The position numbers were made by a program, and so were the translations under genes. From Candidatus Saccharimonadota bacterium (GTDB lineage: Bacteria > Patescibacteriota > Saccharimonadia > Saccharimonadales > Saccharimonadaceae): a DNA stretch of 39,853 nucleotides. Within the stretch, counting starts at the first letter, position 1, and every line of letters begins with the position of its first letter. Where the stretch lies: assembly GCA_027492465.1 (NCBI GenBank), contig JAPUET010000032.1, positions 1 through 39,853 of the forward strand, written 5' to 3'. Positions 5,929 to 9,274 of the stretch are shown in pieces. A model generated the notes under the pieces. The model had not been told where the DNA came from. It made no database searches and worked only from the letters and a program-made list of their open reading frames with translations.

Positions 5929-6026
5929 AAGGATGGTTCTTTGCGTGGCGGTAAAATTTTTAGACGGGTTATAGCTGGTGGCATGCTGCATGAGTAGAAA
6001 ATAACCTAGTGCACCGTGACCTCTGG

Positions 6027-6032
6027 TATAAT
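6027..6032 (+). promoter_or_regulatory. Extended -10 box of argS
   Basis: TGG-TATAAT ends 7 nt before ATG 6040. This rules against an upstream ACG/ATG-type start at 6016, which would precede the transcription start. Confidence 0.55.
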
Positions 6033-6039
6033 AAAGCAA

Positions 6040-7704
6040 ATGGAGCAGCGTGTAGCGGAAATTGTTCAACAAGCGTACGGCATCAACACAGATGTTAGTT
6101 TGTCTCGACCCGAGCCCCAATTTGGTGACTATGCGACTAATGTAGCCTTGCAGCTAGCCAAGCAGGTGGGTAAAAACCCGCGCGAGATTGCCGAAACGAT
6201 CGCCGCTAAATTGCGTGAAACTGGCGACTACGCCAAGGTAGAAGTAGCCGGTCCTGGCTTTATTAATATTACGCTGAGTGCGGATGCGCTGCTGGCTGCC
6301 GTTCGCCAAGAGCCTCGCCCCTTTAACGCAGGGCGTAATATAGTGCTAGAATACAGCTGCCCAAATGCTTTTAAAGAGCTGCATACCGGCCACCTGTACC
6401 AAACGGTGTTTGGTGATATTTTGGCGCGGTTACTACTAGTAAGCGGTGCCAAAGTAAACCGTACGAGCTTTGGTGGTGATGTCGGCCTGCATGTGGCAAA
6501 GTGCCTGTGGGGTATGCGCGAAACATTGGGCGGCGAGCACCCAGAGAAACTTGGCGAGATTGATAACGACGCCTTTGCTCGCTCGCGCTGGATTAGCGAC
6601 TGCTACGTAAAAGGTGCCAAGGCGTACGAAGAAAATGAGGCAGTAAAGGCCGAGATTGATGAGCTAAATAAGACGATTTACGGGTTTCATAACGATGATG
6701 ACCACGAATCGCCACTAGCGAAGATGTACTGGGAAACCCGCCAGTGGAGCTTTGATTATTTTGATGCGTTTTATAAAACAATCGATGTAGCATTGATGCG
6801 CTACTACCCAGAAAGCACCACCGCACCAACTGGGCTAGAGGTGGTGCGCGAGCAGCTGGCCAGGGGTAATTTAACGGAATCTGACGGTGCCGTGGTGTTT
6901 GAAGGTGACGAATCAAAACACTTGCATACCCGCGTGTTTATCACTAGCAAGGGGTTACCTACCTACGAAACCAAAGATATTGGCGTGATATGGCAAGAAA
7001 AGGCCGATTACGGCTTTGACCACCGCTACCTGATAACCGGCAACGACCAACGCGAATACATGCGCGTGGTGTTTGCCGCAGCCGAAACGTTCCGCCCAGA
7101 GCTCGCTGGCACCATGACGCACCTGACCAACGGCACGGTGAAGTTTGCTGATGGCAAAAAAATGAGCTCGCGCCTAGGTAACGTGACCCGCGCGGTGGAC
7201 GTAGTGGATAGTGTGCGCGAAAAGGTGAGAGCGCTGGTGGATGACGAATTGCTGGTAGATAGTGTGACATTGGGTGCGATAAAATATGTGTTCGCTAAGT
7301 ATAAACTGGGTGGCGACATTGCCTTTGATGTGGACGAAACAGTGAGCCTGGCCGGTAATTCTGGCCCGTACTTGCAGTATGCGCATGCTCGTGCCCGCCG
7401 TATTTTAGAAAAAAGCGGCAAGAGCTTTGTGATGCCAGCGAGCCTGCACGACGAAGATTATGCACTGACCCGTAAACTGGGCGAATACACTGAGGTAATT
7501 GAGCTGGCTGCGCGCCAGTGCGAACCGCACCACATATGTAATTATTTGTTCGAGCTAGCGCAAGAATTTAACCGCTACTATGAAAAGAACCAGGTAATTG
7601 GCGGTGATAAAGAAGAGCATCGCCTAGGCCTAGTGGCGCTCTATGCCGATACGCTACAGGCCGGGCTTTCGATTCTTGGAATTCATGCTCCAGAGAAAAT
7701 GTAA
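6040..7704 (+). CDS. argS: Arginyl-tRNA synthetase
   Basis: This 554-residue class I synthetase charges tRNA-Arg. In order: the N-terminal Add-1 domain (FGDYATNVALQLAKQ), the HIGH motif written HTGH within a region corresponding to family SPNxxKxxHxGHLR, the KMSKS loop written KMSSRLGN, and the C-terminal DALR anticodon-binding domain (LQYAHARARRIL onward). The HIGH region reads YSCPNAFKELHTGH, where Ala-Lys-Pro/Met of typical ArgRS is replaced, a moderately divergent version. The start at 6040 is chosen from the -10 box 7 nt upstream. Confidence 0.95.
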   Translation: MEQRVAEIVQQAYGINTDVSLSRPEPQFGDYATNVALQLAKQVGKNPREIAETIAAKLRETGDYAKVEVAGPGFINITLSADALLAAVRQEPRPFNAGRNIVLEYSCPNAFKELHTGHLYQTVFGDILARLLLVSGAKVNRTSFGGDVGLHVAKCLWGMRETLGGEHPEKLGEIDNDAFARSRWISDCYVKGAKAYEENEAVKAEIDELNKTIYGFHNDDDHESPLAKMYWETRQWSFDYFDAFYKTIDVALMRYYPESTTAPTGLEVVREQLARGNLTESDGAVVFEGDESKHLHTRVFITSKGLPTYETKDIGVIWQEKADYGFDHRYLITGNDQREYMRVVFAAAETFRPELAGTMTHLTNGTVKFADGKKMSSRLGNVTRAVDVVDSVREKVRALVDDELLVDSVTLGAIKYVFAKYKLGGDIAFDVDETVSLAGNSGPYLQYAHARARRILEKSGKSFVMPASLHDEDYALTRKLGEYTEVIELAARQCEPHHICNYLFELAQEFNRYYEKNQVIGGDKEEHRLGLVALYADTLQAGLSILGIHAPEKM

Positions 7705-7715
7705 AAAGTTAGTAC

Positions 7716-7744
7716 TTGCGTAGACGTAAATAAAAGTGTATACT
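7716..7744 (+). promoter_or_regulatory. Promoter of the GC-rich attenuated gene
   Basis: TTGCGT (7716-7721), 17-bp spacer, TATACT (7739-7744), then exactly 6 nt to an ATG at 7751. The geometry equals that of the other leaderless promoters in the window. Confidence 0.55.
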
Positions 7745-7750
7745 TATGCC

Positions 7751-7819
7751 ATGTCGAACGCATGCAAACAACATGATCTCATTCTGCTCGTGATGTTTGA
7801 CGCGTCCTCGGCAGGTTAG
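7751..7819 (+). CDS. Putative 22-residue leader peptide
   Basis: A leaderless ORF of 22 codons starts at the predicted transcription start. It encodes Met-Ser-Asn-Ala-Cys-Lys-Gln-His-Asp, then Leu-Ile-Leu-Leu-Val at codons 10-14, and stops at 7817-7819. Its last codons overlap the 5' strand (7806-7812) of an antiterminator helix. The branched-chain run is reminiscent of ilv/leu leader peptides. Translation is inferred, not shown. Confidence 0.4.
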   Translation: MSNACKQHDLILLVMFDASSAG

Positions 7820-7879
7820 TTTTTCTGGAACTGAGAACCAAAGCCGAGGAGGATCCCTCGGCGTTTTTCGTTTCAGAAA
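7805..7879 (+). promoter_or_regulatory. Candidate transcription attenuator
   Basis: Three segments can form mutually exclusive helices. TCCTCGGC (7805-7812) pairs with GCCGAGGA (7843-7850) as an antiterminator. GCCGAGG (7843-7849) pairs with CCTCGGC (7856-7862), followed by GTTTTTCG, as an intrinsic terminator. An outer stem (7822-7831 with 7870-7879, one wobble) would stack around the terminator. The first segment lies inside the leader ORF. The hairpin could alternatively be a late terminator for argS. Confidence 0.5.
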
Positions 7880-7927
7880 CCTTTCACAGGCGGGGCGATG
7901 GTCGCCCCCAACGACAAGGAGGAAGTT

Positions 7928-8161
7928 ATGTCCGATCCTGCCATCAAGGAGGCCGTACTCGCAGCCCTGAAGGAGCGTGGTCCTGTCTCCGCGACCTCGT
8001 ACCGCGGACTGCGGGACCAGCTGGGCCTGCAGTGCACCCTCACCCAATTCTCGAAGGCGGTGAGGTCGCTGCACTACAAGCCCGGGGCTCGCCGCCTCCA
8101 GCTCAGCAGCTGGCGGGGCGTGGAAGGAGAGACGCGCTTCTGGCGTGTCTCTCCCCTCTGA
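7928..8161 (+). CDS. Small GC-rich basic protein, unknown function (77 aa)
   Basis: A 77-residue protein beginning MSDPAIKEAVLAALKERG. Its helical segment with SATSYRGLRDQLGL and LTQFSKAVRSLHY could form a small helix-turn-helix or winged-helix fold, and the C-terminus FWRVSPL would be a final strand; this is a guess from pattern only. Codons are strongly G/C-ending, unlike its neighbours. The start at 7928 follows a perfect AAGGAGG site (7916-7922); an ATG at 7898 lies inside a hairpin and lacks an SD. The SD is complementary to a 15-nt element 320 nt downstream. The 3' end of the coding sequence itself folds into a long hairpin (GGAGAGAC with GTCTCTCC). Likely acquired from a GC-rich source. 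Confidence 0.65.
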   Translation: MSDPAIKEAVLAALKERGPVSATSYRGLRDQLGLQCTLTQFSKAVRSLHYKPGARRLQLSSWRGVEGETRFWRVSPL

Positions 8162-8247: not shown

Positions 8248-8275
8248 AACTTCCTCCTTGTCATTTCTCACACAA

Positions 8276-8319: not shown

Positions 8320-8730
8320 ATGGCTGAAACGAAAACAGCGAAAAGTAAAGTAGCGGTAGCACGTGCAAAAGCTCAGGAACGTGCGACCAAGATGAAGGAC
8401 GGCGCTAAGGGTCATGGTAGTGGGTTTGTAGATTTTATTCGTACTCAAGGAGTGGTTGGCCTAGCGGTGGGCTTGGCGATTGGTGCTGCAGCTGGCGATA
8501 CCGTAAAGAAACTTGTTGAGGGCTTTATTAACCCAGTAGTACAGTTTATTGTTGGTTCACAATCAGCACTCGCGAGTGCAGAGTGGAAACTTGAATTACT
8601 GGGCCGCGAGGCTGACTTTAAGTGGGGTGCGTTTGTTAGCTCGCTTATCACTCTGCTCGCAACGGCACTGGTGATTTATTTGATTATTCATTGGCTCAAG
8701 CTAGATAAGCTCGATAAGAAGAAAGATTAA
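8320..8730 (+). CDS. mscL: Large-conductance mechanosensitive channel MscL
   Basis: This 136-residue membrane protein opens under membrane tension and protects against osmotic downshock. The first transmembrane helix carries the family signature FIRTQGVVGLAVGLAIGAA (family: F..RGNVxDLAVGxIIG). The second, SSLITLLATALVIYLIIHWL, follows a short periplasmic loop. The N-terminus has an extra ~33-residue Lys/Ala-rich stretch before the amphipathic helix, longer than usual. A basic C-terminus completes it. An AGGAG lies 11 nt upstream of the ATG. It sits between two GC-rich foreign-looking genes but has the composition of the rest of the window. Confidence 0.85.
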   Translation: MAETKTAKSKVAVARAKAQERATKMKDGAKGHGSGFVDFIRTQGVVGLAVGLAIGAAAGDTVKKLVEGFINPVVQFIVGSQSALASAEWKLELLGREADFKWGAFVSSLITLLATALVIYLIIHWLKLDKLDKKKD

Positions 8731-8896: not shown

Positions 8897-9274
8897 TCAA
8901 GCCACGCGTGCGAGGCGCAGCTCCGGCCGGCGTCGGCCGCTGTTTGTCCCGAGACGACCGGCTCGGTCGTACTTCTGGGACTTGCGGCGCGACCCGGTGG
9001 TCGGCACGGCCAGGCCGATCTCGAGCCGGTACCGGCTGGCCTTCAGGAGGTCCTTCTCCTGAAGGCCGTCCAGTGCCATCTGGATGACGACGTCCTGCTG
9101 TGCGCGGCACTTGCCAATGTCGCACTTCCGGAACATCCTCCTCCGGATGAAGTTGACGGCCGGTTCGTCGTCCGTGTTGGGTATGCCGTTGTACCGCTGG
9201 GCGATGCCCAAGATACGGCCGGTCGCGATGGCCAGCATTGCCTCGGTCGGACGAAACGCGATGGACTTTGACAT
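8897..9274 (-). CDS. GC-rich basic protein of unknown function (125 aa)
   Basis: A 125-residue protein beginning MSKSIAFRPTEAMLAIATGR, with a conspicuous RRRMFRKCDIGKC segment and a very basic C-terminal third (GRRRPELRLARVA). I do not recognise it; the basic character suggests nucleic-acid or ribosome binding. Codon use is strongly GC-ending, as in 7928-8161 and unlike neighbours. The start is supported by GAGGAG (9279-9284) 4 nt upstream on the minus strand, a plausible promoter beyond that, and a hairpin plus terminator after the stop. A long plus-strand ORF over the same bases (8852-9271) lacks such signals and is probably a GC artefact. Confidence 0.55.
   Translation of the reverse strand: MSKSIAFRPTEAMLAIATGRILGIAQRYNGIPNTDDEPAVNFIRRRMFRKCDIGKCRAQQDVVIQMALDGLQEKDLLKASRYRLEIGLAVPTTGSRRKSQKYDRAGRLGTNSGRRRPELRLARVA

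What the first reader, a model, noticed from the sequence alone, without database searches (positions are those of the whole stretch)
7751..7879. Attenuator with leucine/isoleucine/valine leader peptide upstream of a GC-rich gene
A leaderless 22-codon ORF with Leu-Ile-Leu-Leu-Val at codons 10-14 overlaps the first strand of an 8-bp antiterminator (7805-7812 with 7843-7850). That helix competes with a 7-bp terminator (7843-7849 with 7856-7862) followed by T5. A ribosome finishing the ORF would cover the first strand and favour termination; stalling in the branched-chain run would leave it free. This is trp/ilv-type logic, with a leaderless leader peptide, controlling a gene of unknown function.
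Basis: partly seen in the sequence, partly recalled or inferred. Interest (0 to 1): 0.65.

Follow-up and report, generated by a model that had tools for sequence, protein, structure and literature searches.

The report
Conserved translation-sensing attenuator in Saccharibacteria
In several lineages of the tiny bacteria called Saccharibacteria, a short leader peptide gene and two competing RNA hairpins sit in front of a rapidly changing winged-helix gene and look built to switch that gene on when ribosomes fail to finish the peptide.

Summary
The window is from a Saccharibacteria genome. Homologues of the controlled gene, found first by protein search, lie in the same argS-mscL slot with the same kind of leader. 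A covariance model built from five leaders then found 26 in one family. Every one has a 20-24-codon ORF whose last codons form the antiterminator strand. The antiterminator is formed in 94.0% of pair cells and the terminator in 97.7%, each with covariation above all 500 shuffles. Of 210 terminators in this genome, only this one has such a competing strand (0.15 expected). The controlled gene encodes a fast-evolving, predicted winged-helix protein. A second conserved element was missed: the Shine-Dalgarno region pairs over 9-15 bp with the 3' UTR in 20 of 28 loci. Most likely it is a ribosome-mediated attenuator that switches on when the ORF is not translated to its stop; the signal is open. 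It works like trp/ilv and vmlR attenuators but matches no Rfam family.

The parts
7716..7744 (+). Likely promoter: TTGCGT (7716-7721), 17-nt spacer, TATACT (7739-7744)
   Evidence: Read from sequence; not picked up by the consensus scan. A -10-like element just upstream of the leader ORF recurs in relatives. Inferred.
7751..7819 (+). Leader ORF, 22 codons, MSNACKQHDLILLVMFDASSAG*
   Evidence: Sequence; intact ORF of 20-24 codons in all 26 family members; codon second positions conserved.
7778..7798 (+). Conserved hydrophobic run, codons 10-16 (LILLVMF): proposed stalling region
   Evidence: second base T invariant at two codons; gapless alignment between the run and strand 2 in the 25 leaders compared.
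7752..7761 (+). Strand 1: can pair with 7802-7813 (anti-antiterminator, 1:2)
   Evidence: MFE fold; mean 1:2 probability only 0.51 over 26 leaders. Weak.
7805..7812 (+). Strand 2 (antiterminator 5' arm), within the last codons of the leader ORF
   Evidence: pairs with 7843-7850; 94.0% of cells paired across 26 leaders, with covariation.
7843..7850 (+). Strand 3, shared by antiterminator and terminator
7843..7868 (+). Intrinsic terminator hairpin (7843-7849/7856-7862) and T5
   Evidence: 97.7% of cells paired across 26 leaders, with covariation.
7913..7927 (+). Shine-Dalgarno arm GACAAGGAGGAAGTT, complementary to 8248-8262
   Evidence: 15 bp perfect; top score of 565 ORFs in this genome.
7928..8161 (+). 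Controlled gene X, 77 aa, predicted winged-helix protein, no Pfam family
   Evidence: homologues in the same slot.
8248..8262 (+). 3' UTR anti-Shine-Dalgarno arm AACTTCCTCCTTGTC
   Evidence: own-locus pairing of 9-15 bp in 20 of 28 loci, permutation p < 5e-5.
6016..7704 (+). argS, upstream neighbour (arginyl-tRNA synthetase)
   Evidence: PF00750, PF05746, PF03485.
8320..8730 (+). mscL, downstream neighbour
   Evidence: PF01741.

Best explanation
This is a ribosome-mediated transcription attenuator of a family restricted, in what was searched, to one family of Saccharibacteria. RNA polymerase starts near 7751 and a ribosome translates the 22-codon leader ORF. If the ribosome reaches the stop codon it covers strand 2 (7805-7812), so strand 3 pairs with strand 4, the terminator forms and the downstream gene stays off. 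If the ribosome stalls in the hydrophobic run (codons 10-14), or fails to arrive, strand 2 pairs with strand 3 as soon as strand 3 emerges, the terminator cannot form and polymerase reads into a small winged-helix gene. Read-through mRNA is limited again by a 15-bp duplex between its Shine-Dalgarno region and its 3' UTR. Shown here: the anatomy, its conservation, covariation of both alternative helices, coding-type conservation of the leader, and conserved SD/3' UTR complementarity. Inferred: the promoter, actual read-through, the direction of the switch, and the role of the 3' UTR pairing. Unknown: the signal. I put shortage of aliphatic amino acids, and arrest by the hydrophobic nascent chain or by translation inhibitors, at comparable odds.
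For: Homologues L104, L106, L107, L108 and L118 were found by the protein, not by the leader, and still carry the leader. Model R1 found 26 leaders at E < 1e-5 in 394 family genomes; every locus read in full lies in the argS-X-mscL slot. Antiterminator 94.0% paired and terminator 97.7% paired; changed-both-sides cells and covariation score are reached by 0 of 500 shuffles; slides by 1-3 columns lose the pairing. Concerted changes of all three strands, e.g. L143 CCTCGAC/GTCGAGG/CCTCGAC and L148 TCTCGGC/GCCGAGA/CTCGGC. Leader codons differ at positions 1/2/3 in 55/31/57% of pairs. Window model: no ribosome, antiterminator 0.99 before strand 4 is made; ribosome in the run, 0.96 antiterminator at full length; ribosome at the stop, 0.00 antiterminator and 0.70 terminator. 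Only 1 of 210 terminators in the genome has such a competing strand. SD/3' UTR: 20 of 28 loci, permutation p < 5e-5.
Against: No expression data. At equilibrium the full-length leaders favour the terminator even with a ribosome in the run (means 0.76 against 0.18), so the switch must be kinetic in most members. The 1:2 hairpin is weak (0.51), so an untranslated leader is predicted to read through. The distribution is patchy: 1 of 13 genomes in the window's own genus at a convincing score. The model was seeded with similar leaders, so the conserved GCCGAGG core is partly ascertainment. L110 and L119 have a terminator and the SD/3' UTR pairing but no clear leader peptide.
Confidence: 0.87

Rival explanations
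1. Branched-chain amino-acid attenuator in the strict sense: Leu, Ile and Val codons sense charged tRNA and starvation turns the gene on.
For: Median 5 of the 7 run codons are Leu, Ile or Val; codon positions -8, -7 and -5 are Leu/Ile/Val in 80, 96 and 92%. Spacing suits stalling there. An ilvD-less genome probably has to import these amino acids.
Against: Leu/Ile/Val are about 72-81% of the run's hydrophobic residues, which I estimate to be near what ordinary protein composition gives; Met, Cys, Phe, Gly and Arg are tolerated and one member has only 2. The controlled gene is not a biosynthetic or transport gene.
Confidence: 0.3
2. Nascent-chain or drug-dependent arrest uORF: a ribosome-targeting compound or the hydrophobic peptide itself stalls the ribosome, as in vmlR-, erm- or toiL-type leaders, and the winged-helix protein mounts a response.
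For: Hydrophobicity, and Phe (18 of 25, then Leu/Ile) at position -3, are conserved at amino-acid level. vmlR has the same layering of attenuation plus SD sequestration (PMC9226507); toiL senses several translation inhibitors (PMC12121999).
Against: No known arrest motif was shown; no resistance gene downstream; PADLOC and Pfam give nothing convincing.
Confidence: 0.35
3. The hairpin is only the argS terminator and the upstream complement is coincidence.
For: The terminator lies 140 nt after argS and would stop argS transcripts too.
Against: 0.15 expected by chance in this genome; conserved with covariation in 26 genomes; relatives lacking the insert show no such unit in the short argS-mscL gap.
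Confidence: 0.03
4. The unit is a mobile or recombining cassette whose ends are the SD/3' UTR inverted repeat, and the pairing acts in DNA rather than RNA.
For: Patchy presence in a fixed slot; inverted repeat arms around the gene.
Against: Arms differ between loci but match within each, always include the Shine-Dalgarno site and lie inside the presumed transcript, not at the ends of the insert.
Confidence: 0.05

Closest known systems
Ribosome-mediated attenuators of trp/his/ilv operons, incl. the ilvB-II motif of Corynebacterium (PMC10272879)
   Same: Short leader ORF, antiterminator and intrinsic terminator sharing a strand, ORF end overlapping strand 2, Leu/Ile/Val-rich leader.
   Different: Downstream gene is a winged-helix protein, not a biosynthetic operon; residues conserved as hydrophobic; second layer of SD/3' UTR pairing; different lineage and no Rfam match.
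vmlR leader of Bacillus subtilis (PMC9226507)
   Same: uORF stalling, competing antiterminator and terminator, plus a structure that hides the Shine-Dalgarno site of the gene.
   Different: The SD partner here lies in the 3' UTR across the whole gene; the gene is not an ABC-F factor; inducer unknown.
toiL-topAI of Escherichia coli (PMC12121999)
   Same: uORF that reports ribosome stalling to a downstream gene.
   Different: toiL acts on SD access and Rho-dependent termination; here an intrinsic terminator is used.
icaR mRNA of Staphylococcus aureus (PMC3868564)
   Same: 3' UTR pairs with the Shine-Dalgarno region of the same mRNA.
   Different: icaR uses a UCCCCUG motif; here 9-15 bp, covarying between loci, combined with an attenuator.

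Membership tests
Ribosome-mediated transcription attenuator (trp/ilv type) | Translatable leader ORF under codon-level selection | tested here: met
   26 of 26 intact ORFs; codon positions differ 55/31/57%.
Ribosome-mediated transcription attenuator (trp/ilv type) | Mutually exclusive antiterminator and intrinsic terminator | tested here: met
   94.0% and 97.7% of cells paired, covariation score 0/500 shuffles.
Ribosome-mediated transcription attenuator (trp/ilv type) | Stop codon and run placed so that a finished or stalled ribosome masks or frees strand 2 | tested here: met
   Strand 2 begins 8-17 nt before the stop in all 26 members and the run keeps a fixed distance; modelled footprints.
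Ribosome-mediated transcription attenuator (trp/ilv type) | Leader codons match the amino acid made by the downstream operon | tested here: not met
   Downstream gene is a predicted winged-helix protein; no ilvD in the genome.
Ribosome-mediated transcription attenuator (trp/ilv type) | Measured read-through that depends on leader translation | not testable with these tools
   Needs experiment.
Known Rfam leader families | Match at the family's gathering score | tested here: not met
   No match in the window or in ten related loci; only chance matches at relaxed threshold.
Antibiotic-responsive uORF attenuators (vmlR, erm, whiB7, toiL) | Inducer-dependent ribosome arrest on the uORF | not testable with these tools
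   Needs toeprinting or ribosome profiling.
Antibiotic-responsive uORF attenuators (vmlR, erm, whiB7, toiL) | Downstream resistance, toxin or response-regulator gene | tested here: inconclusive
   Winged-helix fold could be a regulator; no family match.
5'-3' UTR pairing mRNAs (icaR type) | 3' UTR complementary to the SD region of the same mRNA | tested here: met
   20 of 28 loci, own-locus specific, permutation p < 5e-5.
5'-3' UTR pairing mRNAs (icaR type) | Pairing shown to reduce ribosome loading or trigger RNase III cleavage | not testable with these tools
   Needs experiment.
Winged-helix proteins | H-E-H-H-E-E winged-helix fold | tested here: met
   AlphaFold2 pLDDT 82 and 90 for two sequence groups; structural matches mostly winged-helix, best Z 8.4, but Foldseek E no better than 0.016. 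A predicted fold, not a solved one.

The most novel reading that the evidence does not exclude
A previously undescribed two-layer control unit of Saccharibacteria: a uORF attenuator that detects failing translation (hydrophobic nascent-chain arrest rather than amino-acid starvation), followed by an mRNA that closes its own Shine-Dalgarno site with its 3' UTR, guarding a fast-diverging winged-helix protein possibly used in conflict with phage or host.
Probability: 0.25. Interest if true: 0.8.

Novelty: new variant of a known kind. Interest (0 to 1): 0.66.

Why it matters
I found no report of ribosome-mediated attenuation in Saccharibacteria in the papers searched; the only paper shown that matched all terms was off topic, and most subscription papers and bioRxiv preprints are not held. 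From general knowledge, these episymbionts have few regulators and depend on other bacteria for nutrients, so a conserved translation sensor would show directly what they respond to. The unit is compact, occurs in many species in one fixed place, and can be tested in an ordinary laboratory host. It also offers a natural series of covarying SD/3' UTR duplexes for studying a form of control known from few examples.

Tried and rejected
Rfam, Pfam, PHROGs, NCBIfam and PADLOC: nothing convincing. Protein search in phages and plasmids: nothing significant; the single viral-contig match (L032) is a short stretch that I set aside without following. Rejected: chance match, argS terminator only, tRNA element, DNA-level inverted-repeat cassette. 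MAFFT alignments of whole leaders misplace the terminator by 1-2 nt, so the first search model used sequences with linkers and loops trimmed by hand; natural sequences were used for all pair counts (A8). Matches in other families of the order are weak: two were read and did not look like the unit, and the third (L156) was not read because my script printed nothing useful for it. Profile comparison did not link gene-X group A to the other groups by sequence, but linked the other two groups to each other. A scan of SD-preceded ORFs in this genome showed no other GC-rich orphan gene with a comparable SD/3' UTR duplex.

Full report
WHAT WAS CLAIMED AND WHAT IS THERE. All coordinates in the finding are correct. 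The leader ORF (7751-7819) encodes MSNACKQHDLILLVMFDASSAG. TCCTCGGC at 7805-7812, inside its last codons, is the perfect complement of GCCGAGGA at 7843-7850. GCCGAGG at 7843-7849 also pairs with CCTCGGC at 7856-7862 ahead of T5. The minimum-energy fold extends the terminator into a longer hairpin, 7822-7878. The neighbours are argS and mscL.

MORE THAN CHANCE IN THIS GENOME. I read nearly the whole genome and looked for terminator-like hairpins with a GC-rich 8-bp complement of the 5' arm 15-50 nt upstream. There are 210 hairpins and exactly one hit, this one; shuffled upstream regions give 0.15.

RELATIVES, FOUND WITHOUT USING THE LEADER. The 77-aa product has no Pfam family, and no homologue was found in 59 other relatives or by a first scan of GTDB contigs. 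A family-wide search found homologues in other genera, and a profile added two more. They sit in the same argS-mscL slot and most carry the same kind of leader: MPKTCKTDILLLVVFALSSA*, MKTITYNQNLIRDILIVMPSAS*, MTSTQRQFGLILIVRFDVPSA* and MTCMQRQFGLILIVRFDVPSA*. L118 has a different strand sequence, GGCGAaGAGT with ACTCcTCGCC, and a related peptide (pairing read by eye).

THE FAMILY. A covariance model from five leaders found 26 leaders at E < 1e-5 among 394 genomes of the family. Those read in full lie between argS and mscL upstream of a small ORF (part of the output was cut). Ten of the 14 genomes of the richest genus carry it. In the rest of the order there are only three weak matches; the two I read did not look like the unit.

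COVARIATION OF BOTH STATES. On the 26-leader alignment (A8) the antiterminator is formed in 94.0% of cells and the terminator in 97.7%. Changed-both-sides cells and covariation scores exceed all 500 shuffles, and sliding the partner by 1-3 columns loses the pairing. The alignment was fitted to the terminator helix only, so the antiterminator count is the more independent one. In L143 (CCTCGAC / GTCGAGG / CCTCGAC) and L148 (TCTCGGC / GCCGAGA / CTCGGC) all three strands changed together; L149 resembles L143 but its strand 4 has one mismatch. Shared ancestry inflates such counts, and the seeds were alike; both are reasons for caution.

THE LEADER IS A PEPTIDE GENE. All 26 members have an ORF of 20-24 codons. 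In codons -9 to -1 before the P/S-S-A codons, sequence pairs differ at codon positions 1, 2 and 3 in 55, 31 and 57% of cases; at codons -5 and -3 the second base is always T. That is conservation of hydrophobic residues. Leu/Ile/Val fill positions -8, -7 and -5 in 80, 96 and 92%, but their share of the hydrophobic residues (about 0.72-0.81, worked out) is close to my estimate for ordinary proteins. The spacing between run and strand 2 does not change, whereas the linker between strands 2 and 3 varies from 17 to 45 nt. Some members have TATACT about 7 nt before the ATG, as here; others have an AGGAA-type site, so leaderless initiation is not part of the design.

HOW IT PROBABLY WORKS. Partition-function modelling: before strand 4 is made, the antiterminator forms with mean probability 0.92, with no ribosome or with a ribosome in the run, and 0.00 with a ribosome at the stop, which leaves the terminator at 0.94. 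For the window with a ribosome in the run, the antiterminator stays at 0.96 at full length. Completing the ORF therefore favours termination, and stalling or absence favours read-through. In most other members the full-length equilibrium favours the terminator, so the decision would have to be kinetic. The 1:2 hairpin is weak (0.51). These are models; no step has been measured.

A SECOND ELEMENT. GACAAGGAGGAAGTT (7913-7927), which contains the Shine-Dalgarno site, is the exact complement of AACTTCCTCCTTGTC (8248-8262) in the 3' UTR. Of 565 SD-preceded ORFs in this genome it scores highest. In 20 of 28 loci the gene's own 3' UTR pairs with its SD region over 9-15 bp; a permutation of partners gives p < 5e-5. 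All eight loci without it belong to genus g17, where L134 keeps it. This resembles icaR of S. aureus (PMC3868564) and suggests control of translation of read-through mRNA.

THE CONTROLLED GENE. AlphaFold2 gives H-E-H-H-E-E folds with pLDDT 82 for the window protein and 90 for a second group that cannot be linked to it by profile comparison. Structural matches are mostly winged-helix proteins, best Z 8.4; Foldseek E-values are weak. Mean identity to the window protein is 26%, against 50% for the argS C-terminus and 64% for mscL, so the gene evolves fast while its leader is kept. A DNA-binding regulator is the natural guess but is untested.

Right: the three strands, the ORF, the attenuation logic. 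Overstated: branched-chain sensing and leaderless initiation. Missed: the SD/3' UTR pairing, the winged-helix product and the conservation of the slot. The genome lacks ilvD although all 14 controls have it, so the unit does not control branched-chain synthesis by that route.

PLACE AMONG KNOWN SYSTEMS. It works like trp/ilv attenuators and the ilvB-II motif (PMC10272879) and, in layering attenuation with SD sequestration, like vmlR (PMC9226507). toiL (PMC12121999) is a precedent for a uORF that senses translation inhibitors. It matches no Rfam family, and the one feature tying such leaders to amino-acid pathways, a matching biosynthetic operon, was tested and not met. I file it as a new variant of a known kind.

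Noticed in passing
window 8897-9274 (-), and L050, L055, L059, L064, L075, L077: Many small GC-rich (62-76%) genes are scattered in this 46% GC genome; several have an AT-rich promoter, a hairpin leader, a strong Shine-Dalgarno site and a GC-rich terminator. Origin unknown.
   Followed up: partly
L009, argS-mscL interval of G011: A same-genus relative has a different GC-rich ORF in the same slot, with a leader hairpin and terminator but without this attenuator.
   Followed up: no
L125, L128, L130, L135, L141, L144, L145, L147: Genus g17 keeps the attenuator but has mostly lost the SD/3' UTR pairing, kept in L134.
   Followed up: no
L158, upstream of hisS: A genome of another family has a short ORF and a strong terminator ahead of hisS, possibly a separate attenuator.
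   Followed up: no
L038, L039, L040, L100: Collagen-like repeat proteins share an N-terminus of the form MxRLPxPGxDxGxWGxILNDYLSxAH.
   Followed up: no
L110 and L119: Two homologous loci have a terminator and SD/3' UTR pairing but no recognisable leader peptide, so the attenuator may have been lost or changed.
   Followed up: partly
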